From: Alphaproteobacteria bacterium
GTDB taxonomy: Bacteria > Pseudomonadota > Alphaproteobacteria > Sphingomonadales > Sphingomonadaceae
Assembly: GCA_005883305.1 (NCBI GenBank)
Contig: VBAC01000001.1
Location: forward strand, 434,001-498,000
Length of the DNA stretch: 64,000 bases
Direction of reading: 5' to 3'
The translations under genes and the position numbers were made by a program. Below the pieces are notes generated by a model. That model saw nothing but the letters and a program-made list of their open reading frames with translations, ran no database searches and was not told the origin of the DNA. This document shows, piece after piece, positions 5,477 through 21,414 of the stretch (position 1 is its first letter; each line of letters begins with the position of its first letter).

Positions 5477-7615
5477 TCAGCCGAAGCTGAAATCGCTGGC
5501 GTGGATCTGGTTGAGCTTCACGCCCTCCAGCAGGATCGAGTCGCCCGTTCCCCAACTGATCAGCACGTCATTGCCGATCTTGGTCAGCGTGAGGTCTCCG
5601 AAATCGTCGACGCCGGCGATGCCGTCGAGAAAGATCGTGTCCTTGTTCTTCTCGAAGTCGGTGATGCGGTCGTCGCCATCGCCGGGGCCGAAGCCGAACA
5701 GGTCGTTGCCTTTGCCGCCCGTCAGCACGTCGTCGCCGCCGCCGCCCCAGAGCGTGTCGTTGCCCTTGCCGCCATTGAGCACGTCGTTCCCGCCGGCTTC
5801 CGGGGTCGGTAGATCGGCGACGTCGCGATAGGCGACGATCGGGCCCGAGCCGCCGGTGCCGTGCGTGTCGACGGCGACCAGCCCGTCGCCGTAGAGCGTG
5901 TCGCCGCCGTCGCCGCCGCTCAAATTGTCCGCCCCGGAATAACCGGCGAGAAGATTATCGTTGCCGTCCCCGATGAGGTAGTCGTCGAAGGCTGAGCCGG
6001 AGAGATTCTCAAAGCCGTTCAGGGTCATCGCCCCCTGCTCGGTCGCCTGTGCTCCGCCCTGGAGCGCAAGCGAGACAGTGACTCCCGCGACGGTGATGTC
6101 GGTGCCGTTGCCGTGCAGCGAGAGCGTGTCGGTGCCCGTGCCGCCATTCACATTGTGGTTGCCGGTGCCGACCTGGACGAGATCGTTGCCGCCGCCGCCA
6201 TTCAGTATGTCGTTTCCGGTGACGCCCGAGCCGTCCGAGCCGCCCCAGACCCAGTTGTCGCCGCCGTCGCCGGTTAGGACGTCGTTGAAGCGGGTGCCGG
6301 ATACGTGCTCGATGCCGATTAGGGTGTCGTTGCCCTGGCCGGTCGCCTGGGCGATTCCGGCGATGTTGAGGTTGACGGTCACTCCGGCGAGGGCGCTCGG
6401 GGCGTAGGTGGCGCGATCCCAGCCGGCGCCGCCGTCGAGAATGTCGTCGCCCTGGCCGCCGTCGAGATAGTCGTCGTCATTGCCGCCCTTCATCGTGTCG
6501 TTGCCGTCCATGCCGCGCATGAAATCGTGGCCGTCGGCGCCGGCGAGGAGGTTTGCGCCGGCATCGCCGCGGGCAAAGTCGTTGAACGCCGAGCCGAAGA
6601 AATTCTCGATGCTCACCAGCGTGTCGGTGCCGCCCATGCCGTCGTCGGCGAAGCCGGAGCTGAGGTTGATGAAGACCGGACCCGTGCCCGAGGCGTAGCT
6701 CGCCGTGTCCGAGCCGCCGCCGCCGTAGAGCGCGTCGTCGCCTTCGCCACCCTCGAGCGTGTCGTTGCCGCCGACGAACAGCGGATCGATCAGCACGACA
6801 TCGGAATAGGTCGCGATCGGCCCGGACAATCCGGTGTCGTGCGTATCGGCGATGATCCGGCCGTCGCCGTAGAGCGTGTCGTTGCCGAGCCCGCCCGACA
6901 GCAGATCGCTGCCGCCGTCGCCGGCGAGGACGTTGTTGGCGCCGTCGCCGGTCAGATTGTCGTCGCCGGCCGATCCGGAAAGATTTTCGAACCCGCTAAT
7001 GGTCATGCTGCCAATGCCGGTTGCCTGGGCGCCGCCCTGGAGCAGCAGGGAGACGGTGACCCCGGCGAAGGCCGCGTTGTTTCCCCAGACGGAGAAGCTG
7101 TCGATGCCGGTGCCGCCGTCGGCGGTCACATTGCCCGGCCCGACCTCGACCAGATCGTTGCCGCCGAAGGCCTCGATCGTGTCGTCGCCATTCTCGCCCC
7201 ACAACCAATTGTCGCCGTCATTGCCCTGGATGAGGTCGGCGAATTCGGTGCCCGAGGCATGTTCGATGCCGACCAGCGTATCCATGCCGACGAGGGTGTT
7301 CTGGGCCACGCCCTGGATGCGCAGGTCGACGGCGATGCCGCTCGTCGCGGTGACGAAGGCGATTCGGTCGAATCCGGCGCCGCCGTCGATGAGGTCGTCG
7401 CCCGGGCCTCCGCGCAGATAATCGTCGCCATTGCCGCCCAGCAGGATGTCGTTGCCGCCCTCGCCGCGCAGATTGTCGTGGCCGTCGCCGCCGTCGACCG
7501 TGTCGTTCCCGTCGCCCGCATTGACCAGATCGTTGCCGTCGAAGGCGGTTATGGTGTCGTCGGCGGGCGTCCCGATCAGGAAATCGTCGCCCGGGGTTCC
7601 GTTGATTATCGCCAT
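5477..7615 (-). CDS. RTX (hemolysin-type calcium-binding repeat) secreted protein
   Basis: A 712-residue protein made almost entirely of glycine/aspartate nonapeptide repeats (GGxGxDxLx) that bind calcium and form beta-rolls. It has no N-terminal signal peptide. The C-terminus (DRITDFEKNKDTIFLDG and ending ASDFSFG) is typical of type I secretion substrates. The ATG at 7615 is preceded by GGGAGGG at good spacing, so the 24 extra upstream codons are not used. The protein contains two related tandem modules of about 330 residues, each with a VTVSLxLQGGAQAT segment and a GFENLSGSA segment. No enzymatic domain is visible, so an adhesin or surface-layer role is likelier than a toxin. No type I secretion genes are in this window. 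Confidence 0.9.
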   Translation of the reverse strand: MAIINGTPGDDFLIGTPADDTITAFDGNDLVNAGDGNDTVDGGDGHDNLRGEGGNDILLGGNGDDYLRGGPGDDLIDGGAGFDRIAFVTATSGIAVDLRIQGVAQNTLVGMDTLVGIEHASGTEFADLIQGNDGDNWLWGENGDDTIEAFGGNDLVEVGPGNVTADGGTGIDSFSVWGNNAAFAGVTVSLLLQGGAQATGIGSMTISGFENLSGSAGDDNLTGDGANNVLAGDGGSDLLSGGLGNDTLYGDGRIIADTHDTGLSGPIATYSDVVLIDPLFVGGNDTLEGGEGDDALYGGGGSDTASYASGTGPVFINLSSGFADDGMGGTDTLVSIENFFGSAFNDFARGDAGANLLAGADGHDFMRGMDGNDTMKGGNDDDYLDGGQGDDILDGGAGWDRATYAPSALAGVTVNLNIAGIAQATGQGNDTLIGIEHVSGTRFNDVLTGDGGDNWVWGGSDGSGVTGNDILNGGGGNDLVQVGTGNHNVNGGTGTDTLSLHGNGTDITVAGVTVSLALQGGAQATEQGAMTLNGFENLSGSAFDDYLIGDGNDNLLAGYSGADNLSGGDGGDTLYGDGLVAVDTHGTGGSGPIVAYRDVADLPTPEAGGNDVLNGGKGNDTLWGGGGDDVLTGGKGNDLFGFGPGDGDDRITDFEKNKDTIFLDGIAGVDDFGDLTLTKIGNDVLISWGTGDSILLEGVKLNQIHASDFSFG

Positions 7616-7882
7616 GTTCAGGCCCTCCCAGTCAGCGGCCGGCGGCGCGGCGGCAGGAAGGGCCGCGGGCGAGGCGCTTGGTTGCAAGCGAATGGAAAAT
7701 CGGGCGGCGCCCGATTCCCGGGACTCGGCTTGTTAAGCGACAATAACGGGTAGAATTGCGCGCTTCAATTCCGGGCCTTAACCATAAATGCTTCAATTCG
7801 AAACAAATGGCTGCTCTTGAGTTCGGCGCCAGCCCGGCCTAGCGTCGTTTCATACCGAAGCGGACAAAAAAGGAATCGCGTC

Positions 7883-8530
7883 ATGATCGTCTATGGGTCG
7901 TCGCTGTCGCCGTTCGTGCGCAAGGTGCTCGCCTTCGCCGCCGAGAAGGGTATCGAGGTCGAGCTCAAGCCCTCGGGCCTCGGCAACAAAGATCCCGAAT
8001 TCCTCGAGGCCAGCCCGTTCGGCAAGATGCCGGGCCTGAGGGACGGCGACTTCGCCATTTCCGATTCTTCGGCCATCGTCGCTTACATGGACTCGGTGAA
8101 GCCCGAACCGAACCTGATCCCGACGGAGCCCAGAGCGAGGGCGCGGGCGATCTGGTTCGACGAATATTCGGACACGATTTTGTTTGCTTGCGGGGGGAAG
8201 ATGTTCTTCAACCGGATCGTCGCTCCGCGGTTTCTCGGCCAGCCGGGGGACGAGGAGATCGCGGCCAAGGCGGAGTGCGACGAGCTTCCGCCCCTGCTCG
8301 ACTATCTGGAGCGGGTCATTCCCGAGAGCGGATTCCTGGTCGAGGACCGGCTGACCCTCGCGGACATTTCGGTGGCCAGCCCGTTCGCCAACCTCCAGCA
8401 TTTGGGCGTCGTGCTCGACCCGGCCCGGCACCCGCGCCTCGAGGCCTATGTCGAGGCGATCCTCAGCCGGCCGAGCTTCGCGCCGTGGATCGCCAAGGAG
8501 GCGGCATTCCTTGAGAAGACCGCGGCCTGA
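7883..8530 (+). CDS. Glutathione S-transferase family protein
   Basis: A 215-residue protein with an N-terminal thioredoxin-fold GST domain. It has SLSPFVRKVLAFAAEKGIE at the glutathione site, the cis-proline segment GKMPGL and the helix start ISDSSAIVAYMD. The C-terminal helical domain is in residues about 90-210 (LTLADISVASPFANL). I took the ATG at 7883, where the family's MIVYGSS start begins, instead of the upstream TTG at 7817. The gene's last roughly 87 bp are copied a second time about 173 bp downstream, evidence of a local tandem duplication. Confidence 0.9.
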   Translation: MIVYGSSLSPFVRKVLAFAAEKGIEVELKPSGLGNKDPEFLEASPFGKMPGLRDGDFAISDSSAIVAYMDSVKPEPNLIPTEPRARARAIWFDEYSDTILFACGGKMFFNRIVAPRFLGQPGDEEIAAKAECDELPPLLDYLERVIPESGFLVEDRLTLADISVASPFANLQHLGVVLDPARHPRLEAYVEAILSRPSFAPWIAKEAAFLEKTAA

Positions 8531-8703
8531 TGCGCGCCATCGCCAGGACCGTCTCGTTCCACGCCTATGCCGGTTCGGTGGGCGAGGCCGGCCCCCCGCG
8601 TCACGTCGGGCGCAAGGCCTATGTCGAGGCGATCCTCGGCCGGCCGAGCTTCGCTCCGTGGATCGCGAAGGAGACGGCGTTTCTCGAGAAGACCGCCGCC
8701 TGA
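8530..8703 (+). pseudogene. Chimeric remnant of a tandem duplication (dioxygenase start joined to GST end)
   Basis: A 57-codon reading frame that begins like the downstream DOPA-dioxygenase gene (MRAIARTVSFHAY compared with MRAVAEIASFHAH) and ends like the upstream GST (AYVEAILGRPSFAPWIAKE and FLEKTAA, then stop). It lies between the two intact genes. The simplest reading is duplication of a segment spanning the GST end and the dioxygenase start, followed by divergence. A working product is unlikely. Confidence 0.7.
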
Positions 8704-8705
8704 CG

Positions 8706-9107
8706 ATGCGCGCCGTCGCCGAGATCGCCTCCTTCCACGCCCACGTCTATTTCGGCGGCGAGGGAGAGGCGGAGGCGGCGCGGCGGCTGCGCGAAGCGGT
8801 GGCGGAGCGATTCGCGGTTCGGCTGGGCGCCTGGCGCGACCGCCCGGTCGGCCCGCACGCCCGCGCCATGTTCCAGATCGCCTTCGCGCCCGGCCTGTTC
8901 GGAACGATCGTCCCCTGGCTGATGCTCAACCGCTCCGGCCTCTCGATCCTCGTCCACCCCAACACCACCAACCAGCGCCGCGACCATGTCGACGACGCCT
9001 TGTGGCTCGGCCCGGCGCTGGCGGTGGACGAGAGTGTGTTGCCGGACGGGGAGGGCGAGGCGGAGGGGGCTGGCGAGGTGAATACGGAGCCGCGCCTCGA
9101 TCCGTAA
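8706..9107 (+). CDS. DOPA 4,5-dioxygenase-like protein
   Basis: A 133-residue protein resembling the small DOPA 4,5-dioxygenase family, non-haem iron extradiol ring-cleaving enzymes. The visible family features are SFHAHVYF near the N-terminus, GPHARAMFQIAF in the middle and LSILVHPNTTN around residue 80, which supply the His residues expected for metal binding. The substrate in bacteria is generally unknown. The acidic tail after residue 115 is extra. It starts three bases after the GST-like remnant's stop and probably belongs to the same transcript as the GST gene. Confidence 0.8.
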   Translation: MRAVAEIASFHAHVYFGGEGEAEAARRLREAVAERFAVRLGAWRDRPVGPHARAMFQIAFAPGLFGTIVPWLMLNRSGLSILVHPNTTNQRRDHVDDALWLGPALAVDESVLPDGEGEAEGAGEVNTEPRLDP

Positions 9108-9155
9108 AGGCTCAACAACTAAACAGAATCTTCGCTCTGATCGCTGTGATCAGGA

Positions 9156-10094
9156 CTAAAGGTTGATCGGGTACACCCATGATCGCCCCACCCCCTTCGA
9201 TGTCTCGCGATCGTACAAACTAGCGTTCGGATAGATCATGCTAGCTGGCCGCTTCGTCAGATGACGTAAATAATAGAGACCGAAGCCGACCGCCTGCGGC
9301 TTCGTGGCAAGCGGCGTCAAATAAATATTGGTGATCTGCCTATGCTTGCTAACAGTATCGACTGCTGTGGCGAGTGAGGATGCTATAACGAATGGGTCAT
9401 TGGCGCTGCTGAAATAGACTTCGTCGCCAATCCGCGACCTCTCGGATCTCACCCGGTGCAACCGCAGGATACTTTCGTGATACATGTCCGCGCTCAGGGA
9501 CGGAAATGAGTGGAGTTGGAGTATCCGGGCGGCCTCCTTCGCCTGAAGCGCATGGGATATCAGCTGATGATCGTAGCCGACCCCGAGTACCAACAAATCG
9601 CCATTTACGTCATTCTCGTGCGCACCGATATAGCCGGCGACTGATCGCACCTCGACGTCTTCACCGATCGAAAACCGGGTTTCGGCACGGCGCTTATAAT
9701 GTTCGGGCTCCGTGTAAAGGAGGTCGAAGCTACGACACCCCTGGTCGTTCAAATAAGCCATGAGAAACAAAATTTGCGGCCGCATCATGCCGGTGATGTC
9801 GACGCACAGCCTTTGGCTGCTATCGAAGCCGATCTCCCGCATTCCCCGCGTGACGACCTCGTCTTCATGCCCTGCCTCGAGATGAACTGCGTTTTCGAGG
9901 TGAGATATCTCACCGGCCCCGTAGGCATATTCGGGTAACACCCACCACGCCCGCTTATTCGCCGGCACCGTTGTAAAGACCCGTTGCACGCGCTCGCTGT
10001 CGTTATAGGCAGAGACGAACAGATCCCAAGGCTCGGTCTCACCAGCATGCAGCCGATATTTCGCGTCGATGAGCGACTCGATTTCGATGTTCAC
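9156..10094 (-). CDS. Two-fold Rossmannoid protein with CARF-like loops, last gene of the conflict-type operon
   Basis: I do not recognise a named family for this 312-residue protein. It has an internal two-fold pattern. Residues about 23-40 (WDLFVSAYNDSERVQRV) match about 166-183 (DLLVLGVGYDHQLISHAL), and residues 97-130 (CVDITGMMRPQ then ILFLMAYL) match 254-285 (TNIYLTPLATKPQ then AVGFGLYYL). Each half looks like a Rossmann-type alpha/beta unit with a strand-loop-helix motif similar to the ligand loops of CARF domains, which bind cyclic oligonucleotides. No nuclease or transmembrane segment is evident. Its ATG overlaps the stop of the upstream ATPase gene by 4 bp. A ligand sensor is a hypothesis. 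Confidence 0.7.
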   Translation of the reverse strand: MNIEIESLIDAKYRLHAGETEPWDLFVSAYNDSERVQRVFTTVPANKRAWWVLPEYAYGAGEISHLENAVHLEAGHEDEVVTRGMREIGFDSSQRLCVDITGMMRPQILFLMAYLNDQGCRSFDLLYTEPEHYKRRAETRFSIGEDVEVRSVAGYIGAHENDVNGDLLVLGVGYDHQLISHALQAKEAARILQLHSFPSLSADMYHESILRLHRVRSERSRIGDEVYFSSANDPFVIASSLATAVDTVSKHRQITNIYLTPLATKPQAVGFGLYYLRHLTKRPASMIYPNASLYDRETSKGVGRSWVYPINL

Positions 10095-12100
10095 GCTTGA
10101 AACAGCTCCTGAGCGCCGTCCCCGGGCGGACTCACTATTCTGTTCACCCGACGCTTGAAGATCGTCGGGAGCGTCGAGCGCAGGTCAGGATCGAGGATCG
10201 CATTGGCAAATTCGCCGGCTAGTTCGATTGATCCTCTGAGATGTTCGGACACCTCCCATCGCGGTGCAAGCATTGGCGCGAGCCGAAATTTCTCGTCGAC
10301 GCGCCGATTGTTCTTGTTCCGGCGGCCTTCAGGCAACCGAATTAGGTACGACCAGTTCTCCGCAATCCTCAGCACTTTGCGGCTGTTGTCAGTCAGTTCG
10401 TCCAAGGCGACGCTGAACATGCACAGGTCGCACTCAGATGGCGCATGACCGAAACGCACTGTTCGGAAAAGGATGGCGATGCCTTCAACCGCTTCTCGAA
10501 CGCGCATGCCGTCGCTGCCTGGTTGTGCGTCTTCCCAAAACCATGATGCTCCATCGCGGACACCGTCCGTCTGCGACCGGATCGAAATGACACCGCCTTC
10601 AAATGGGTGCTCGCCGGCAAATTGGGCGCGTCGATAGATGTGCTTCAAATTGGTTAGTAAATTCCGGGGGCTGCCCTGAGACAGCGTCACTAGCGTCGGG
10701 AATCCCGTGTAGGGTACACGTCGGCGAAAGTCATAATAGAGTTGCGCCAGAATGTCCGATCCCCAGTAGCTAATGAAATCGTGCAGCGCTTTACCCTCGT
10801 TTCGATAGCCGGCTGCCAACGCTCGCGCTTGATCACCAGCGTACTGCGCCAAGTCGATGGCCTGAGCGACGCTCTTCGGCCATTTTTTTCGAAAGTAAAA
10901 AGAGGACGCCTTTTCAAGAAACAGATGGTCCGGGACCGCAAGGGCAATGAGTACAGCCTCGACGTCGTCGTCGGCCATGCCAGGAATTAGCTTGAGATCA
11001 TCCTTGAGTCGGCTGTGGAGGTAGCGGCGGCGATCGCTCTCGCCATGGGGCATCAGGTCGCGCTGCGCGGCCTCCCAGTAATTGGAACTGTCGAGAATCT
11101 CGAAGCACTGATCGAGCGCTCGATTGCCCTTAGTGTCCACGAGCGAACCGAAGGCCTGAAGCCGCTTCTGAACTAAGCTGCGAACCAGATTTTCATATTC
11201 CCGCGGCTGTTCGCGCAAGAGACGGTCGAGCTCGACTCTCTCATATTCGGCATTTCGCTTGATCGGCTCACCCGAACCAAGGGTCTCGTATGTCTTGACC
11301 CCATACAGTCTGGCGCCAAGCTTGATCGTGGCATTTCCTGAGCGATAGCGGATGAGCGAGTTCAGGAAGCGCTGTTGATCCTCGGTGAAGTTTTCCACTT
11401 CGTCGATGAGGTAAACGATCAGCACCTCAGCTAGCTCGGGCACTAGATCGGCAATCAAGCGAGGTATACCGAACACCAGCCGCCCTGGAGAAAAGGTTAT
11501 TGTGATCTCAGCGGCCTTGCCCGAAAGCGAACTGTTGTTGACGGCAAAGTCGATGCTCTTTCGCGTTCGCGTCAGATAAGCGAGCAAGCTGGACACATCC
11601 CTGAACTCACCGCTCATCGAGATATCGAACAGGTCGGACACTCCGGCGGCAAACGCCGCTTCGTCGATTGGCTCGTGACGCTGAGCGCAGAAATCTCGCA
11701 GGATATCCACCAAGCTTGTGGCCAGCCAGAGCTCGAAATACATGCTGAAAATCGGATTCCAGTATTCGGCACTCAGCCCTTTTCCAGAGAACTTGTCCGT
11801 ATTCAGTGCATTGGCAAGAACGTAGATGCCCAGATATCCATCTTGCGCAACCGCACGAGTCAGGCTGCCGTCTCGCCGAGCCGCCTGCACTGGCGCCGAG
11901 CAGTAGCGCATTAAATGCGTCTTGCCGCTTCCTTTGCCGCCAAGCAGGAGCATCGGCAGCCGCAACGTCGGCTTCAAGATACCAAGCAGGCCGCCGGGCG
12001 CGTCCGAAAAGTCGACCCAATGTTCCGCAATCTCGGCGTCCGAGAAGTCGGACGCCCTGTTCAGATCGAACGGATTTTCGTGGAGGCCCGGTTCGCGCAT
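10091..12100 (-). CDS. ORC/CDC6-like AAA ATPase of the conflict-type operon
   Basis: A 669-residue protein with a P-loop NTPase core in its N-terminal half. The Walker A motif is GGKGSGKTHLMR at about residues 54-65. The Walker B region is VLIVYLIDEVENFTEDQQ near residue 230, followed by FLNSLIRYRSG and a sensor-like IKLGARLYG. This layout fits the ORC-CDC6 group of AAA ATPases found in bacterial conflict systems. The C-terminal 350 residues contain no motif I can name and are rich in Arg and aromatic residues. It sits between the PRTase-like gene (7-bp gap) and the Rossmannoid gene (4-bp overlap), so the products are probably made in fixed proportion. The likely role is an ATP-driven switch. 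Confidence 0.82.
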   Translation of the reverse strand: MREPGLHENPFDLNRASDFSDAEIAEHWVDFSDAPGGLLGILKPTLRLPMLLLGGKGSGKTHLMRYCSAPVQAARRDGSLTRAVAQDGYLGIYVLANALNTDKFSGKGLSAEYWNPIFSMYFELWLATSLVDILRDFCAQRHEPIDEAAFAAGVSDLFDISMSGEFRDVSSLLAYLTRTRKSIDFAVNNSSLSGKAAEITITFSPGRLVFGIPRLIADLVPELAEVLIVYLIDEVENFTEDQQRFLNSLIRYRSGNATIKLGARLYGVKTYETLGSGEPIKRNAEYERVELDRLLREQPREYENLVRSLVQKRLQAFGSLVDTKGNRALDQCFEILDSSNYWEAAQRDLMPHGESDRRRYLHSRLKDDLKLIPGMADDDVEAVLIALAVPDHLFLEKASSFYFRKKWPKSVAQAIDLAQYAGDQARALAAGYRNEGKALHDFISYWGSDILAQLYYDFRRRVPYTGFPTLVTLSQGSPRNLLTNLKHIYRRAQFAGEHPFEGGVISIRSQTDGVRDGASWFWEDAQPGSDGMRVREAVEGIAILFRTVRFGHAPSECDLCMFSVALDELTDNSRKVLRIAENWSYLIRLPEGRRNKNNRRVDEKFRLAPMLAPRWEVSEHLRGSIELAGEFANAILDPDLRSTLPTIFKRRVNRIVSPPGDGAQELFQA

Positions 12101-12107
12101 GTTTCTC

Positions 12108-13121
12108 TCAAATCTTTGGATAGCGCCGGAATGCCGGCGTCCACGCCTCCGACTCAGAACCCTCTGCCCAAATTATCGGAAGGGTATTGTCGGGGGTGTT
12201 GTGATGAAAGCCAAGCAACAGCTGACTATTGTCGTACCCTCCTGGATGGAGCGGCCGCAGCAGGTTCCCATACCACAGCGCTATCTCGCGCAACACAGCG
12301 CCATCAATGTGCGCCGGCGCCGCGCGCATGATCCGGGAGCCTTCCGTTAAGCAACGATAGCTGTCGTCTAATTCGAAAACGGCACCGCAATTCTGCCCGA
12401 ACTTCGTCTGATCACGGACATTTTGGAGACCGTCAGTCGACGCAAACATCGAGAGGTAGTGAAGCTTGGCGTTTGAATTGAGCGCTAGAATGTCTGCTAG
12501 GATATTCGTAGAATAGTCGATCGCAGTCTTGCCAGAGCCGCAGATGTCATCGACAAAAACGTAGCGGTTAATATCGGGCTGGGAAAGCGCTCGACGGTGG
12601 GAGCCGTCGGGCAATTGCTCGTTCACGAAGACAGCAGCGCTGTCCATAAACAGACGCTTCCTCAGTTGGTTCTCCTGTCGAAAATAGTACAGTAGATGAA
12701 CGCCGCTTTCCGATGGATTGCCGACGCCAAGAAATCGCGTTCTCGAGAGCGCGAGCTGGACTCCCTCTTCTATCTGCGCCTCGTCCCTCGTGTTGCCGAG
12801 CGATTGGCGCACCTCCTGGATCAATGGGATCATGAAAAGATCCCGATAGATTGCCTGAAGGAGAACGCGGGTCTCGATGTTCCCGATGTATAAAAACTGG
12901 GATAGGAGAAAGAGCGCATGGAGCTTCTCGACCCGCATGTCGATGCCAGAGCGACCATCGAAATTGGCCAGCCAAGCCTGTACTGCGGGCCACTCGTTCC
13001 GGCCTTCCCACGCGCGAAGCGACAGGATTGCCACCCGCTGTCGGAGGAGGTCCCATGTGTCCTCGGGGGTCGTCTCGCCATCGCCGGGAAGGATTGACCG
13101 GATATCGTCGAGGGTAGACAC
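12108..13121 (-). CDS. Phosphoribosyltransferase-like (PRTase-CE type) protein
   Basis: A 337-residue protein. Around residue 190 it has YVFVDDICGSGKTAIDY, the shape of a type I phosphoribosyltransferase PRPP loop (hydrophobic strand, two acidic residues, then a small-residue loop and Thr). Near the C-terminus is LLLGFHHNTPDNTLPIIW, a block I associate with the PRTase-like proteins of bacterial conflict operons. The N-terminal 130 residues are helical with no recognised motif. Such proteins are thought to modify or sense nucleotides, but the activity is not known. It is separated by 2 bp from the methyltransferase gene upstream and 7 bp from the ATPase gene downstream. Confidence 0.75.
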   Translation of the reverse strand: MSTLDDIRSILPGDGETTPEDTWDLLRQRVAILSLRAWEGRNEWPAVQAWLANFDGRSGIDMRVEKLHALFLLSQFLYIGNIETRVLLQAIYRDLFMIPLIQEVRQSLGNTRDEAQIEEGVQLALSRTRFLGVGNPSESGVHLLYYFRQENQLRKRLFMDSAAVFVNEQLPDGSHRRALSQPDINRYVFVDDICGSGKTAIDYSTNILADILALNSNAKLHYLSMFASTDGLQNVRDQTKFGQNCGAVFELDDSYRCLTEGSRIMRAAPAHIDGAVLREIALWYGNLLRPLHPGGYDNSQLLLGFHHNTPDNTLPIIWAEGSESEAWTPAFRRYPKI

Positions 13122-13123
13122 CG

Positions 13124-14530
13124 TCAGTTATCCTTGCGGAGCACGATCACATATTCACTGGCGATCACGCCAGCTGTTGCCGCGCGGCGCGTCATGAGCC
13201 CGCGCGATTTGATATCGTCAACCAGAGCGAGCCTGGTGGTCATTCCTAGATCGTGCAGCATTGTCTCAAGATATTGCGACGTGGCGAAACGGCGGCCGCA
13301 CACCGTATTATCGCCGATGACCAGGATGAAGTGTCCACCTCGACGCAACACGCGCACCGCCTCGCAAAGCGCGTCCTTCATCTCCACGAGATAGGTCGAT
13401 GCGATCAGCGCTCTTGTCGGGTTTTCTTTGCGAATAGCTGTTAGCAGATCGTCCGCGGCGGATATGCCCGTCTCGACAACATCATCGTGCTTGACGCGCG
13501 GAAAATGCTCGCGACCAATTGTCGCGTCTTCGAGCGGGCGTAATTGCCCCACACCGGCGATCCCCAACCACCCTAGGCTCAAGCTGGCCGCACGTACATA
13601 TTTTTGCGCTCCGGCATAGGGTGGTGAGGTGAGCACCATACCGATGGTCTCGTCGGGCATGCTCTCGCCATCGACATCGCACAACCTGCGTGCGTCTTCA
13701 CCGCACAGCCGAGCAAGCGCGCCTTGAGAACTCAATCTGCCGAGATTTGCCATTCGAGACTGGTTGGCCCTGAACTGCTGCTCAAAAAGTCGCCAAACAT
13801 CCGGGGACGAACCCAGCCCGTCTGCATCGCGGCGCCTGACCGGCACGGAAAAGCGGGGATCCGCGAGGCTCGCCTTCCGCAAGGCAGCAGAGAAGGTGAC
13901 CAGCAGGAATTCCCGCACTTCATTATTTGCGAAGTCCTCGATTGCAGCCTTAAGGCGAATCAAACAGGAGATCGTGGTCTCATCAAACCAACGCTCGAGG
14001 TTCACTACATCGGGCCGACGGCGCGCCCGTGTTTTTGCGAAGCGTTCCCCCACGAGTTGAAGCGCCTGACTCAGCGCCTCAGCCTCAATCTGTCGCGTCT
14101 TGCATGTTGCGATCAGTCTAGCGAGGGGGTTCGCGTCAGCATGAAGCGCATCCCGTCCGGAGAGGATGGTTTCCAAGGCGACCGTGCCCGTCCCGCCGAA
14201 CGGGTCGAGCACGGCTTCGTCAGCGGCCACGAGCTTCGTCGTGGCGAGGAAGAAGTGAGCGATCTGCGGCAGAAGTTTGGCGGGATACGTATGGATGTGA
14301 TGAGTGGCTCGCTCTCCCATCTTGATCCACGGAACTAGATCACGGAATGACACAGCGATTGGGCTACGCTCGGACTGGTAACGCCGCATCAGCGTCTCGA
14401 GGACTTGACCCGTATCGACGGGAAAAGCCTTGTCAGGGCCGGAGCGGGGCCCAACAGCTTTCGTTCCCGCTCCCGGCGTGCGAACTAAGCTCTCAACTTT
14501 TCGCGCGGGCGAGAATCCTCCTGCACTCAC
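13124..14530 (-). CDS. DNA methyltransferase (SPPY-type), first gene of the conflict-type operon
   Basis: A 468-residue (or shorter) S-adenosylmethionine-dependent DNA methylase. The SAM-binding motif is DPFGGTGTVALE near residue 108. The catalytic motif is TSPPYAG near residue 300, the SPPY form usual for N4-cytosine or some N6-adenine methylases. The motif order is FGG before SPPY, with about 190 residues between. The GTG start at 14530 is uncertain; the ATG at 14389 (MRRYQSERS) would give 421 residues and keep every motif. No restriction endonuclease is encoded nearby. Base composition is lower in G+C than in the flanking genes. It probably marks host DNA for the downstream system. Confidence 0.85.
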   Translation of the reverse strand: MSAGGFSPARKVESLVRTPGAGTKAVGPRSGPDKAFPVDTGQVLETLMRRYQSERSPIAVSFRDLVPWIKMGERATHHIHTYPAKLLPQIAHFFLATTKLVAADEAVLDPFGGTGTVALETILSGRDALHADANPLARLIATCKTRQIEAEALSQALQLVGERFAKTRARRRPDVVNLERWFDETTISCLIRLKAAIEDFANNEVREFLLVTFSAALRKASLADPRFSVPVRRRDADGLGSSPDVWRLFEQQFRANQSRMANLGRLSSQGALARLCGEDARRLCDVDGESMPDETIGMVLTSPPYAGAQKYVRAASLSLGWLGIAGVGQLRPLEDATIGREHFPRVKHDDVVETGISAADDLLTAIRKENPTRALIASTYLVEMKDALCEAVRVLRRGGHFILVIGDNTVCGRRFATSQYLETMLHDLGMTTRLALVDDIKSRGLMTRRAATAGVIASEYVIVLRKDN

Positions 14531-14964
14531 TTCGATTCAGCCCCTTGGTCCGCGACGACCCAAAGGGCTCGTCCTCCTGACTTCTAGATGACAGGTACGA
14601 TTGGCTTAATCTAGCAGTACTCGTCTAGTTGGGTCCTCAAGCGTCGGAAACACGGTAAAGCGGGAGCGGACAAGGCGCTTAGCCCTCGCCGGGACATAAC
14701 GGGCCGGACGTTTCCGCCCGGCCCGGCGGCCGCAAGGTTGCCCCTCGGTCGCCGGGGGGCTCTACATCGTCAGGCCTTCGGGCGAAATAGCATAATGACT
14801 TCAAGCGGTTGAACGGGCGCTTCGGAGGGTTGAGCCGGGGTCCGCAACCGCCCCTTTCGCGCTCCCTAGGGATTCTCCGCCGGAGCGCGAGGGGATTCTC
14901 CCCGGCGGTTTCTGCGGGTTTGCGCCGGTGTTCGGCGGCGCGGCGGCGCGCGACAACCGACGCC
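14531..14964. other. Intergenic region upstream of the conflict-type operon
   Basis: About 430 bp with no convincing gene. The left third is AT-richer (including GGCTTAATCTAGCAGTACTC) and should hold the minus-strand promoter of the four-gene operon. On the minus strand TTGAGG and TAGATT about 20 bp apart are a weak promoter candidate. The rest is GC-rich, and the composition change near 14650 may mark the edge of the acquired segment. I saw no flanking direct repeat. Confidence 0.4.
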
Positions 14965-15501
14965 ATGAAGCGGGCCCTGCTCATCGCTTGCGTCCTCTTG
15001 GGGGGGATCGCGGCTCCGGCCGAGGGGCGGATCTACCCGCCCGGGGAGATCGATCTCGGCGGCTCCCGCCCGAGCTGCGGGTGGGTGCCGGCCACGGTCG
15101 AGGACATTTCCGACATCGCCATCTCGACTCCGGGCATGATCCACCTCAATCCGGCGATCTTCCGCCTGCCGCGGCCGCTCCAGCTCTTCTGGTATGCGCA
15201 CGAATGCGCCCACCAGCTCTACGGCACGAGCGAGGGCCAGGCCGATTGCTGGGCGGCGCGCAGCGGACGCGACCAGGGCTGGCTGCGCGAGGAGGATTTC
15301 GTGCTGATCGAATGGGCGCTGGCCGACAATCGCGGCGATTCGCGGCACCAGCCGGGGCCGCAGCGCGCGGCGCTCATCCGGCGCTGCTTCGACACCGACT
15401 CAAGCCAATATGCCGGGCCGCGCGCGCAGGGCCCGGGCCTTGCCTCCTATGCCGGCGGCCGGCGGAGGGCCGCCGCTTCCGTCTCCTACGACGAGAAATA
15501 A
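14965..15501 (+). CDS. Secreted protein with an HExxH-like motif
   Basis: A 178-residue protein with a clear signal peptide (MKRALLIACVLLGGIAAP then AEG). The core contains FWYAHECAHQLYG around residue 78. Its HECAH matches the HExxH zinc-protease motif, followed by SEGQADCWAARSGR, where Glu or Asp could be the third ligand. This resembles small secreted metallopeptidase-like proteins, but I do not know a named family, and activity is inferred from the motif alone. Four Cys residues suggest disulfides in the periplasm. I chose the ATG at 14965 because the signal peptide begins there. Confidence 0.75.
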   Translation: MKRALLIACVLLGGIAAPAEGRIYPPGEIDLGGSRPSCGWVPATVEDISDIAISTPGMIHLNPAIFRLPRPLQLFWYAHECAHQLYGTSEGQADCWAARSGRDQGWLREEDFVLIEWALADNRGDSRHQPGPQRAALIRRCFDTDSSQYAGPRAQGPGLASYAGGRRRAAASVSYDEK

Positions 15502-17964: not shown

Positions 17965-20900
17965 GTGGCGATTGTTTCGACCGAGGGCCCGGGCACGCAC
18001 CTGCTGGTGGTCGGCGCCGGGGGCGGGAGCGCGGCCGCGGGGAAGCGCATTCTCGAGCCGGCGCTCCACTCCGCCGCCGCGCTCTACCGATGGTTCACCA
18101 CCGAAAACAATCGCAATCCCGGGACGTCGCTGGCGAGCGTCGACATTCTCATGTCGCGCCCCGGCCCCACGATTCCTCCGGCCTGGTTCGGAGGACCTGG
18201 AGGCATTGCCGACCTTGAGCCGCCCACCTTCGCCGCTCTGGAAAGGGCTTTGGCCGGCTGGATGGAGCGGGCCAATTCCGACATCCGCAACATCGCGGTC
18301 TTCTATTTCGCCGGCTACGGACTCTACGGTGGCCGCAAGACCGCCTTGCTGCTCGACCAGCCCGACTTCCCGAACGCCCCGCCCGGTCATGAAATTGCGA
18401 GCTTCTACAATATCGTCGATGCGATGACCCACTGCACGGCCCGCAGCCAGCTCTATATCGTGGATCGTTGCCTGCCGCCTTCGCTCGAGGGGATGGAGGC
18501 GCGGAGCTTTTCGAAGCGTTCGCCGGATCTCACTTCGGACCCGCTACGTACCATCCTGGATTCCGAGGCGCCGGGGGAGCGCGCCTATTCACCAGGGTCC
18601 GGCGTTCCCAGCTTCTTGATGCAGTCGTTGCTCGGTGCGCTTGGCGCCCCAACGCCCACCGGCGGGCCATGGACCGCGCGAAGCCTGATGAGTGAGGTCG
18701 TCGAGCGGATGGTCGCGACAACAAGGCCTCTGGGCTTGAAGCCGCATCTTGAACGAGACGATATCGGTGACTTTGAGCTTTACTTCCTGCCCAAACCTCC
18801 ACCGCCGCCGCCATCGCAGGTGAAACCCCAGCGCAAGGCGCGTAAGCCGAAGGCGACGCCCGGAAAGGCGGTCGAGGAGATTTCGACTACAGCCGGCCCC
18901 GAAGCGGTCGTTCGGGATGAAAGGTCGGCCGCCGAGGCGCCGGAGTCCGGGCTGGTCATGCTGGACGGGGGCCCGGCTGCGGACGCGGGAGCCGACGCGG
19001 CGGAACCGGAAGAGCGAGCCGACGCCGATCTCCAGCAAGTGGGCGAGTGGGAGCCACGCCCCGGGGTCGAGGCTGAGAACCAACTGCTCGCCCAGGCCGG
19101 TCACGACCCTATGGCCACTCGCGTCGGTTGGTTGACGGCCCGCCAGCGGGAGTGCCTGGGCCTCTTCGGCCTAATGGGCCTCTCCACCCAAGAAATCGCG
19201 GCGCGGCTCGGGATCGCGCAGGTCACTGTAAACCGGCATCTTCAGGCCGCTGTCGCCACTCTCGCCGTCAGAAGCCGCTCGGAAGCGGCGAAACTCCTCG
19301 AACGCTACGGCGGCTGGGTCGAGCCTCCCGCACAGACCCAGGGCGATAAGCCGAAAGCAGCTTCGATCAGTGCGTCCGCCGCCGAACCCAACACCCATTT
19401 CGTCACCGACGATCCCGAGGTCGAGCGCGACGACCTGAGGCGCGGGCCGCTGGCGATCGCGCTCGGGCGGCGATTGCACCGGATCTGGTGCCGGTCGAAC
19501 GGAATCAAGGTGCCGGGCGACGAGGATGCCGTTGCCGGGGGCGACGAGCGTTCGTCATTCGTGCTTCACCTCGACGCGCCATGGGGCGGCGGCAAGACCA
19601 GCTTCGCCAATTTCCTCGATCGGGTGCTCAATCCCTTTCCGCGCGGCGCGAAACGGGCGGCCGACTTCCTCCATGAGCGGGCGGGGCAGGCCGTCGGAAC
19701 GATCTTTATCGACGACCCGCCGGGCGACGGCAAGGAAGGCGGCACCGCCGCCCGATGGCCGGAGGATTCGCGGCGGCCGTGGATCGTGGTGCCGTTCAAC
19801 GCCTGGCAGGCCGAGCATTGCTCGCCGCCCTGGTGGACCTTCTACCAGGCGATCCGCAAGGGCTGCTTCGCCGCCGTCTGGGCCGAGGGCAGGGGGGCTT
19901 CGCGGCCGGCGCAATCCTCGGCGCCGCCGGCCCCGCTGATCGAGGAGAGAATCTGGTCGTGGGCCGCGCTGTGGCGGCGCGAGCTCTGGTGGCGGCTGCG
20001 CAATCCCAAGATACTCGCCCGTCTCGCGACCTTCGCTCTCGCAGCCATCGCGCTGGTCGTCCTTTGGCGGTTCGATCTCGTCTTTCAGGGCGACAAGGGC
20101 CCGAATTTCAACGCCGGCAATGCGCTCGGCTTCGTTCTTGCCGGGATCGGCGGGATCAGCGGGCTGTGGGGTCTCGGCGCGCTGCTCACCGAATCGGTCG
20201 CGCCCGGCACCGACGATGCCGCCGAGCGGCGCAGCCTCGGCGGCGGCGACCCGTTCGAGCGGTTCCGGCGGCATTTCGTGCGGACGATGGCGGCGGTCCG
20301 GCGGCCGGTGATGGTGGTCGTCGACGATCTCGACCGCTGCCGGCCGGACTTCGTCGTCGACCTCGTGCGCGGCATCCAGACCCTGCTCAGGAGCCCGCGT
20401 GTCGTCTTCGTCATCCTCGGCGACCGCGACTGGATCGAGCGAGCGTTCGAGGCTCATCACGCGGCAATGAGCAAGGTCAATGTCGGACAGGAGCAGGAGT
20501 TCGGCGCGCGCTTCGTCGAGAAGGCGATCCAGATGTCGTTCATCCTGCCGGAAATGCCCGACGCGAGCCAGGACGCCTATGTCCGCCGGGTGCTGATCGG
20601 CCCGGGCGCGGTCGCGGCGGACGCCGCCCCACCTCCGCCCCCCGACATCGCCCAGCAGTTACGCGCGGAGTATCGCGAGACCGTCGCCACCGCCGAAAGC
20701 GCCGAGGAGCGCCAGCTGGCGGAGCAAGCCCTGCGACACAAATATGAGTCAACCATCCAGGCGATCGGCCGGGGTCTGGAGCACGCGTCGAACCAGCTGT
20801 TCGACTATAGTGCGAGCGACTATCGGGTGGCGCCGGACGCCGAGGCTGCCAGCGCCCAAGCCGACAAATTGCTCAGCGAGGAGCGCGCGCTGTCGGCCGC

Positions 20901-21414
20901 GGTCGACGAGAAGATGGGCCAGGCGCTGCTCCACCGGCTCGAGCCGCTGGCGCGCTTCTTCCCGCCCAATCCGCGGCAGATCAAGCGGATCGTCAACGCG
21001 ATTACGATGTACACCGCCGTCGCCTATTTGCAGATGGAGATGGACGAGAGCGACGAGCGCGGCATCGAGCTGGCGATCTGGGTGATCGTCATGACCGAAT
21101 GGCCGAAGACGTGGCGGGTGCTGGCGAGCTGCCCTCGGATCGCCGACGTCCTTGCCGAAGCCGACCCCAAGGCGGCGCTCGACAGGATCGACGAGAGCGA
21201 GCTGCCGGGGTCGCGGGAGGCGACCCTCAAGGAGGTGAACCGAATCCGCGCCGACCCCGATCTGCTGGCGCTGATCACCGCGGTGGACGAGGGCCGTCCG
21301 CGCCTGCGCACCAGCTCGGTCGAGGCATTCGTCCGGCTGACACCGCTCTACAGCCGCAAGCAACGGCTGGAGGAAGCAGGAGATGCGAAAGGGACAGGCC
21401 GCGCAGAATTGTGA
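17965..21414 (+). CDS. Caspase-like/LuxR-HTH/KAP P-loop NTPase fusion protein
   Basis: A 1149-residue multidomain protein starting at a GTG behind GAGGGGAGC. Residues 1-270 look like a caspase-fold domain: strand VFYFAGYG (112-119), where Tyr118 replaces the usual His, and LYIVDRC (163-169), with Cys169 where a catalytic Cys would lie. Residues about 275-385 are a low-complexity Pro/Ala/Glu linker. Residues 390-445 form a LuxR/GerE helix-turn-helix (LTARQRECLGLF, STQEIAARLGIAQVTVNRHL). From 480 on there is a KAP NTPase: Walker A APWGGGKTS near 540, two hydrophobic segments near 686-705 and 719-741, Walker B VMVVVDDLDRC (783-792), and PNPRQIKRIVNAI near 1010. KAP proteins are membrane-anchored NTPases, many linked to phage defence. 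A single-gene sensor-effector is plausible but unproven. Confidence 0.8.
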   Translation: MAIVSTEGPGTHLLVVGAGGGSAAAGKRILEPALHSAAALYRWFTTENNRNPGTSLASVDILMSRPGPTIPPAWFGGPGGIADLEPPTFAALERALAGWMERANSDIRNIAVFYFAGYGLYGGRKTALLLDQPDFPNAPPGHEIASFYNIVDAMTHCTARSQLYIVDRCLPPSLEGMEARSFSKRSPDLTSDPLRTILDSEAPGERAYSPGSGVPSFLMQSLLGALGAPTPTGGPWTARSLMSEVVERMVATTRPLGLKPHLERDDIGDFELYFLPKPPPPPPSQVKPQRKARKPKATPGKAVEEISTTAGPEAVVRDERSAAEAPESGLVMLDGGPAADAGADAAEPEERADADLQQVGEWEPRPGVEAENQLLAQAGHDPMATRVGWLTARQRECLGLFGLMGLSTQEIAARLGIAQVTVNRHLQAAVATLAVRSRSEAAKLLERYGGWVEPPAQTQGDKPKAASISASAAEPNTHFVTDDPEVERDDLRRGPLAIALGRRLHRIWCRSNGIKVPGDEDAVAGGDERSSFVLHLDAPWGGGKTSFANFLDRVLNPFPRGAKRAADFLHERAGQAVGTIFIDDPPGDGKEGGTAARWPEDSRRPWIVVPFNAWQAEHCSPPWWTFYQAIRKGCFAAVWAEGRGASRPAQSSAPPAPLIEERIWSWAALWRRELWWRLRNPKILARLATFALAAIALVVLWRFDLVFQGDKGPNFNAGNALGFVLAGIGGISGLWGLGALLTESVAPGTDDAAERRSLGGGDPFERFRRHFVRTMAAVRRPVMVVVDDLDRCRPDFVVDLVRGIQTLLRSPRVVFVILGDRDWIERAFEAHHAAMSKVNVGQEQEFGARFVEKAIQMSFILPEMPDASQDAYVRRVLIGPGAVAADAAPPPPPDIAQQLRAEYRETVATAESAEERQLAEQALRHKYESTIQAIGRGLEHASNQLFDYSASDYRVAPDAEAASAQADKLLSEERALSAAVDEKMGQALLHRLEPLARFFPPNPRQIKRIVNAITMYTAVAYLQMEMDESDERGIELAIWVIVMTEWPKTWRVLASCPRIADVLAEADPKAALDRIDESELPGSREATLKEVNRIRADPDLLALITAVDEGRPRLRTSSVEAFVRLTPLYSRKQRLEEAGDAKGTGRAEL

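What the first reader, a model, noticed from the sequence alone, without database searches (positions are those of the whole stretch)
9156..14530. Four-gene methylase / PRTase-like / ORC-CDC6 ATPase / CARF-like operon on a lower-GC island
Seen: four minus-strand genes spaced +2, +7 and -4 bp, with visibly lower G+C than both flanks. Motifs are DPFGGTGT and TSPPY (methylase), FVDDICGSGKT and GFHHNTPDNTLP (PRTase-like), GGKGSGKT and LIDEVENF (ATPase), and duplicated CARF-like loops in the last gene. Established: ORC-CDC6-type ATPases and PRTase-CE proteins occur in bacterial conflict systems. Inference: methylase marks self, ATPase is the switch, and the PRTase-like and Rossmannoid proteins sense or make a nucleotide signal. 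I know of no characterised system with exactly these four genes.
Basis: partly seen in the sequence, partly recalled or inferred. Interest (0 to 1): 0.87.

Follow-up and report, generated by a model that had tools for sequence, protein, structure and literature searches.

The report
Modular four-gene bacterial defence cassette
A mobile cassette of four genes, which probably marks the cell's own DNA and harms the nucleotide supply when unmarked foreign DNA arrives, recurs in distant bacteria with a constant core and exchangeable parts; it very likely belongs to a family already predicted on computers, and I saw no report of a test.

Summary
In detail: four packed minus-strand genes (gaps +2, +7, -4) at 57% G+C between flanks of 67-69%. 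They encode a methylase (TSPPY), PRTase-CE (PF24390), an ORC-CDC6-like ATPase (PF24389) and a CARF6-type Rossmann protein. A scan with the ATPase alone returned 20 loci; 16, from four phyla, carry the same four genes in order, and the other four are cut by contig ends (one lacks an upstream methylase). The four proteins co-evolve. ATPase and CARF6 stay together while other slots differ: HD-CE or a calcineurin-like enzyme in the PRTase's place, N6- or C5-type methylases instead of TSPPY. So the PRTase is more likely the effector than a signal maker. A related cassette is nearly identical on 140 plasmid records, mostly Klebsiella. thyX adjoins 8 of 8 loci from hosts named as Hyphomicrobiales (one found through thyX), dUTPase two Moraxellaceae loci; both act at dUMP. 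PF24389-PF24391 are neighbouring Pfam entries, and I recall two of the names from Nicastro 2023, which is not held; the arrangement is probably predicted there. Defence and every mechanistic step are inferred, not tested.

The parts
13124..14530 (-). DNA methyltransferase (468 aa), first gene of the operon; motif I DPFGGTGT (14183-14206) lies before motif IV TSPPY (13616-13630)
   Evidence: ORF; PF01555 1.9e-7; PADLOC MTase_II 2.8e-38; weak PDB matches in pieces of swapped order, 2zie 1.5e-5 and PvuII methylase 1boo 0.047; DPFxGxGT and SPPY in 25 of 25 aligned rows
12108..13121 (-). PRTase-CE protein (337 aa), predicted effector; PRPP-loop-like VFVDDICGSGKT at 12525-12560
   Evidence: PF24390 8.4e-58; PADLOC PRTase_III-A 6.3e-29; DD in 30 of 30 rows; a loose loop pattern found in 37 of 38 PRTase rows, not in L141
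10091..12100 (-). ORC-CDC6-like AAA+ ATPase (669 aa); Walker A GGKGSGKT 11918-11941, Walker B LIDEVEN 11390-11410
   Evidence: PF24389 8.9e-130; of 28 rows K60 in 24, T61 in 26, D233 in 28, E234 in 27
9156..10094 (-). CARF6-type Rossmann-fold protein (312 aa), predicted ligand-gated partner of the ATPase; CARF signature DITGMMR at 9780-9800
   Evidence: PADLOC PDLC01914 1.3e-93; signature [DN]X[ST]XXX[RK] as given in PMC4012209 (passage); D99, T101, G102 in 28 of 28 rows, R105 in 24 of 28

Best explanation
The operon is a self-versus-nonself defence cassette with exchangeable parts. The methylase marks host DNA at its target sequence. The ORC-CDC6-like ATPase, acting on DNA, and the CARF6 protein form the constant sensing and switching pair; unmarked invading DNA, or a nucleotide that appears during infection and binds the CARF pocket, trips the switch. 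The switch then releases the PRTase-CE effector, which uses its PRPP-type site to attack the nucleotide pool and so stops phage growth, often with the cell. Shown here: the four genes are a conserved, co-evolving, mobile unit; ATPase and CARF6 stay together; the effector and methylase slots hold different enzymes in related operons; catalytic motifs are conserved. Inferred: the defence role, self-marking, what is sensed, and the chemistry and target of the PRTase.
For: A scan with the ATPase alone gave 20 loci; 16 carry methylase-PRTase-ATPase-CARF in this order; L024 and L035 end inside the ATPase gene, L032 begins inside it, L036 ends inside the CARF gene and has no TSPPY methylase in its 2 kb upstream. 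A PRTase query in viral contigs gave two loci and both carry all four. Pairwise distances of the four proteins correlate at 0.85-0.93 over 21 loci, 0 of 2000 permutations as high. Effector slot: HD-CE in L119, L137, L140 by Pfam and L121, L122 by phmmer; Metallophos in L138. Methylase slot: N6-type in L072-L074, L120, L124-L126, L136, C5-type in L119, L121, L122, L137. The gene after the ATPase matches PADLOC CARF6 in 13 of 13 proteins tested; the fusion L143 matches CARF6--CARF_STK_AAA over residues 12-1228 of 1239. PRTases are effector genes of type III-A1 retrons (PMC12548924, passages) and partner DprA in a system tested against phages (PMC9122126, passages). Spread: 2 of 26 genus genomes have a match over the cut-off and they are not sisters in the ATPase tree; one relative has other genes at this place.
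Against: No phage phenotype was found for any member. Self-marking is not shown: by three methylase models no methylase adjoins L138, L139, L141, L142, and in L140 C5-type ones lie 3.5 kb away. PRTase-CE often occurs without this ATPase: 18 of 398 genomes had PRTase-CE, 4 of those with the ATPase detected beside it. No maker of a CARF ligand was recognised in the operon. Structure prediction never finished. Nearby defence genes were not compared with a control.
Confidence: 0.5

Rival explanations
1. The PRTase makes a nucleotide signal that the CARF protein reads, and the harm is done by another, unrecognised activity.
For: CARF domains are proposed ligand sensors (PMC4012209, passages); PRTase and CARF distances correlate at 0.905; the best CARF6 model differs with the form: PDLC01914 window, 01913 L072 and L074, 01920 L125 and L126, 01917 HD forms, 01919 calcineurin form, 01910 L141 and L142, as a sensor matched to a changing signal maker would.
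Against: HD-CE and a calcineurin-like phosphoesterase, which usually break rather than make nucleotides (recalled), stand in the same slot.
Confidence: 0.12
2. It is a maintenance (addiction) module of plasmids and islands: methylase or ATPase/CARF restrains the PRTase, and loss of the cassette frees the toxin.
For: Many copies are on plasmids, and some are decayed (L069, L070).
Against: Four conserved genes with an AAA+ ATPase exceed usual addiction modules (general knowledge). Not tested here.
Confidence: 0.12
3. It is a restriction-modification relative: the methylase protects, and the ATPase/PRTase/CARF complex damages unmodified DNA directly.
For: Methylases of three kinds accompany the core. 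ORC/Cdc6-type ATPases work in BREX (PMC12839542, passages) and Ssp systems (PMC10853773, passages).
Against: No nuclease family among the listed matches of the four window proteins in Pfam, PADLOC or NCBIfam (for the methylase 25 of 39 PADLOC families were shown).
Confidence: 0.16

Closest known systems
Nucleotide-targeting effector systems with PRTase-CE, HD-CE and calcineurin-type effectors (Pfam PF24390, PF24391; ORC-CDC6-like PF24389; Nicastro et al. 2023 NAR, seen only in the reference lists of PMC12839542 and PMC10853773)
   Same: The window's ATPase and PRTase are strong members of the Pfam families; three unrelated effectors beside one ATPase fit the paper's title and what I recall of its abstract.
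   Different: I could not check whether the paper draws this four-gene arrangement, its methylase kinds, thyX or dUTPase.
CARF6 proteins (PADLOC models among PDLC01910-PDLC01925; defining paper not held)
   Same: The gene after the ATPase matches a CARF6 model in 13 of 13 proteins tested, and the window protein carries the published CARF signature.
   Different: No second-messenger synthase recognised in the operon; the ATPase is a separate protein except in L143.
Type III-A retrons
   Same: PRTase family (PADLOC PRTase_III-A, 6.3e-29; that the name means the retron type is my reading).
   Different: No reverse transcriptase among ten window proteins scanned and no Rfam match at 8500-15200.
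BREX and Ssp systems
   Same: ORC/Cdc6-clade ATPase together with DNA modification (PMC12839542, PMC10853773, passages).
   Different: No PglZ or phosphorothioation gene recognised in the operon.
MADS (methylation-associated defence system)
   Same: Methylase plus ATPase; the ATPase of L072 weakly matches mad8 (2.3e-4).
   Different: No mad model among the matches of the window's ATPase, PRTase and CARF.

Membership tests
ORC-CDC6-like / PRTase-CE effector systems | PF24389 ATPase adjacent to a CE-type effector (my wording of the definition; the paper was not read) | tested here: met
   434.5 and 196.6 bits against cut-offs of 27; genes 7 bp apart
ORC-CDC6-like / PRTase-CE effector systems | anti-phage activity or nucleotide degradation | not testable with these tools
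   needs phage challenge and pool measurements
CARF6 | match to a CARF6 profile and the [DN]X[ST]XXX[RK] signature | tested here: met
   PDLC01914 1.3e-93; DITGMMR in the window; signature text from PMC4012209
CARF6 | Rossmann-like CARF fold by structure | tested here: inconclusive
   structure job interrupted, then unfinished; no PDB sequence relative at E 1
Type II restriction-modification | cognate endonuclease | tested here: not met
   no nuclease family among the listed matches of the four proteins
Retron type III-A | reverse transcriptase and its non-coding RNA | tested here: not met
   no RT family in ten window proteins scanned; no Rfam match at 8500-15200
MADS | mad gene set | tested here: not met
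   no mad model among matches of the window's ATPase, PRTase and CARF; for the methylase 25 of 39 matching families were shown
CBASS / type III CRISPR signalling | second-messenger synthase near the CARF protein | tested here: not met
   none among ten window proteins scanned; the rest of the genome was not searched for one
DS32_1 anti-phage PRTase (NCBIfam NF053875) | score above the curated cut-off | tested here: not met
   12.9 bits against a cut-off of 250

The most novel reading that the evidence does not exclude
The ATPase+CARF6 pair is a general plug-in immune switch whose exchangeable effectors all strike the dUTP-dUMP-dTMP part of nucleotide metabolism; thyX and dUTPase genes beside the cassette are its cognate protection or re-supply enzymes, and the CARF6 pocket reads a nucleotide of that pathway.
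Probability: 0.1. Interest if true: 0.78.

Novelty: new member of a known kind. Interest (0 to 1): 0.52.

Why it matters
If right, one conserved switch (ATPase plus CARF6) is coupled to three unrelated nucleotide-attacking enzymes and to several kinds of DNA methylase, so swap experiments could show directly how methylation status is passed to an effector. A related cassette is nearly identical on 140 plasmid records, mostly Klebsiella; in the ten rows listed its genes are called hypothetical proteins plus a methylase, and it could affect which phages and plasmids these bacteria accept. What CARF proteins without a known signal maker respond to is an open question that this system makes testable.

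Tried and rejected
Internal duplication of the CARF-like protein: rejected. Phage carriage: the window's ATPase has no match among phage records. Type B and Klebsiella-type ATPases match two records of one Acinetobacter phage name; the one looked at (L120) has flanks such as efp, cstA and tRNA-Val that look chromosomal, so I do not count it. Four IMG/VR contigs carry the cassette (L074, L126, L147, L148); I did not check whether they are truly viral. Att-like repeats around the island: none convincing. RNA element: none. Promoter and terminator scans: 1 against 2.5 and 6 against 5.4 in shuffles. PDB sequence relatives: none at E 1 for CARF, PRTase or ATPase. Defence-island context: among 153 neighbour proteins that I chose, most of them from 273 picked by a length rule, PADLOC matches include type I R-M, Dsr1, ThsB and PD-Lambda-4 (first 25 of 186 and of 105 families shown); no control was run and the second set holds three methylases of the system itself, so I claim no enrichment. 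thyX as a true operon member: left open, since its orientation varies and it also sits beside another two-gene cassette (L117, L118).

Full report
What is there. The window holds four consecutive minus-strand genes, from 14530 down to 9156, with gaps of +2, +7 and -4 bp. Their G+C is 0.571, against 0.672 and 0.688 on the two sides; the lowest of 96 same-length windows outside is 0.667. In order: a DNA methylase with motif I (DPFGGTGT) ahead of motif IV (TSPPY); PRTase-CE (PF24390, 8.4e-58); an ORC-CDC6-like ATPase (PF24389, 8.9e-130); and a protein without a Pfam match that fits PADLOC CARF6 at 1.3e-93. PDB sequences match the methylase only weakly, in pieces of swapped order: 2zie at 1.5e-5, and the N4-cytosine methylase of PvuII at 0.047. 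That the product is N4-methylcytosine is a guess from the TSPPY motif.

Is the set real? One genome for each of 84,980 species (figure from the tool's description) was scanned by pattern with an alignment of the ATPase only, and I looked at what lay beside each of the 20 loci. Sixteen have all four genes in the same order. Of the other four, L024 and L035 end inside the ATPase gene, L032 begins inside it, and L036 (PRTase, ATPase, CARF) ends inside the CARF gene and has no TSPPY methylase in its 2 kb upstream. L027 and L028 are near-copies, and L032 and L035 are from one strain. The hosts are Pseudomonadota, Actinomycetota, Bacteroidota and Verrucomicrobiota. Of 12 plasmid records with the ATPase eight were fetched: four intact sets (L066, L067, L068, L071), two with broken genes (L069, L070), and two of another type (L072, L073). 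Two viral-collection contigs found with the PRTase also carry all four. Distance matrices of the four proteins correlate at 0.85 to 0.93 over 21 loci, 0 of 2000 permutations as high; broken, truncated and near-copy loci were dropped. The set is inherited together.

It is mobile. In 26 genomes of the genus, two have a match over the cut-off, and their copies lie in different, well supported parts of the ATPase tree. In one relative, G024 (86% complete), the gene to the left of the operon and the gene at window 17258 lie about 2 kb apart with other genes between them. The difference therefore spans about 9.1 to 17.2 kb of the window, more than the operon itself.

It is modular. Type A is the window form. 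In type B (L072, L073, L074, L120, L136) an N6-type methylase follows the CARF gene; in L073 its N6_Mtase score is just below the Pfam cut-off. In Klebsiella plasmids (L124, L125) and in L126 a relative of that methylase comes first. In type C (L119, L121, L122, L137) a C5-type methylase is followed by an HD protein in the PRTase's place; Pfam calls it HD-CE in L119, L137 and also L140. L123 shows only ATPase and CARF before its record ends. In L138, and its near-copy L139, the slot holds a calcineurin-like phosphoesterase. In the ATPase tree of 40 rows, PRTase (31), HD (5), calcineurin (2) and the diverged PRTase rows L141 and L142 each fall together; the large PRTase group has weak support (61/30), and long branches meet between the calcineurin and the diverged PRTase rows, so the deep order is unsure. 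The gene after the ATPase matched PADLOC CARF6 in 13 of 13 proteins tested: the window, L072, L119, L125, L074, L122, L123, L126, L137, L138, L140, L141, L142. In L143 the ATPase is fused to a protein-kinase-like part (Pfam Pkinase below cut-off) and the protein matches CARF6--CARF_STK_AAA.

A broader sample. In 398 genomes drawn from the phylum, 9 had PF24389 at E 1e-12 or better, the window's genome included (only 3 candidates a genome were scored, so this is a lower bound). Beside the ATPase lay PRTase-CE (window, G513), HD-CE (G519, G806), a calcineurin-like protein (G585, G728), a diverged PRTase that still passes the PF24390 cut-off (G643, G823), or it was fused to the kinase part (G740). 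By three methylase models a methylase directly adjoined three of these nine; in G806 and G740 C5-type methylases lie farther off. In reverse, 18 of 398 had PRTase-CE at E 1e-10 or better, and in 4 of them my ATPase models found the ATPase beside it, for most within only about 1.5 kb. So PRTase-CE serves other partners too.

How it most likely works. The published CARF signature [DN]X[ST]XXX[RK] (PMC4012209, passages) is present as DITGMMR; D99, T101 and G102 are in 28 of 28 rows and R105 in 24 of 28, but type B and Klebsiella-type rows lack the basic residue at that place. The ATPase keeps its Walker residues in 24 to 28 of 28 rows, though a strict Walker A pattern failed in three Actinomycetota rows and in L141 and L142. 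A loose PRPP-loop pattern is in 37 of 38 PRTase rows. ORC/Cdc6-type ATPases serve BREX (PMC12839542, passages) and Ssp (PMC10853773, passages). PRTases are effector genes of type III-A1 retrons (PMC12548924, passages), partner DprA in a system active against T7 and lambda (PMC9122126, passages), and are named in a figure legend on validated anti-phage systems (PMC13092281, passages); I did not test that these are the same PRTase family, beyond the PADLOC PRTase_III-A match. From this I infer: the methylase marks self, ATPase and CARF6 sense and switch, the PRTase attacks nucleotides. Three unrelated enzymes in one slot are the main reason for calling the PRTase the effector. The varied methylases suggest self-marking but do not show it.

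Nucleotide enzymes alongside. Among 48 loci scanned (flank lengths differ, so misses are possible) thyX lies within 553 bp of the cassette in 8. These are the 8 fetched loci whose hosts are named as Hyphomicrobiales: L029 and L066-L070 with PRTase, L119 and L121 with HD. Two further unfetched plasmid records carry both thyX and the ATPase at nearby places. A dUTPase_2 gene lies 2 bp before the PRTase gene in L072 and overlaps it in L120.

Medical plasmids. The Klebsiella-type cassette matches 142 plasmid records, 140 over at least 80% of its length, 141 at 99% identity or more: Klebsiella 130, Serratia 7, Enterobacter 3, Escherichia 2; 131 are typed conjugative. Four of 5426 E. coli genomes carry it, by strain name C600 and J53 derivatives. 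One of these records flags the ATPase gene as frameshifted; I did not pursue this.

What is known. No NCBIfam model is above its cut-off for the proteins scanned. PF24389, PF24390 and PF24391 are consecutive Pfam entries. PRTase-CE and HD-CE are names that I recall from Nicastro et al. 2023, which is not held. The word PRTase-CE occurs in no held paper, and in the listings of searches (some capped at 20 titles) and the passages that I read I saw no description of this four-gene set. I expect that the unread paper predicts this arrangement or a close one, so I file the find as a new member of a known kind.

Noticed in passing
L029, L066-L070, L119, L121 (beside the cassette): thyX lies within 553 bp of the cassette in the 8 fetched loci of hosts named as Hyphomicrobiales, in three arrangements and next to two effector types; cause unexplained, and L119 was found through thyX.
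   Followed up: partly
L072:7239-7904 and L120:6377-7015: A dUTPase_2 gene lies directly before the PRTase gene in two Moraxellaceae loci.
   Followed up: partly
L117:6932-10290, L118:6840-10294: Two-gene cassette directly after thyX on rhizobial plasmids (375 and 743 aa in L117, no Pfam match); possibly another unnamed system.
   Followed up: no
L124, L125: Klebsiella-type four-gene cassette, nearly identical on 140 plasmid records, most of them typed conjugative.
   Followed up: partly
L141:5838-12581, L142:5562-12993: Diverged PRTase-ATPase-CARF6 sets near a HAD-domain protein and a NADAR protein (L141) or a PfkB kinase (L142), a further variant.
   Followed up: no
window 17965-21414 (+): 1149-aa protein with LuxR-type HTH and KAP P-loop NTPase (PF07693 5.4e-24) and a caspase-like match below cut-off, 3.4 kb from the operon.
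   Followed up: no
window 8401-8763: Direct repeat: two adjacent copies, start to start 173-176 bp, 75-79% identical, the first covering the 3' end of the glutathione S-transferase gene (the scan began at 8400).
   Followed up: no
window 5477-7687 (-): 736-aa protein with 14 matched stretches of RTX calcium-binding repeats (PF00353).
   Followed up: no
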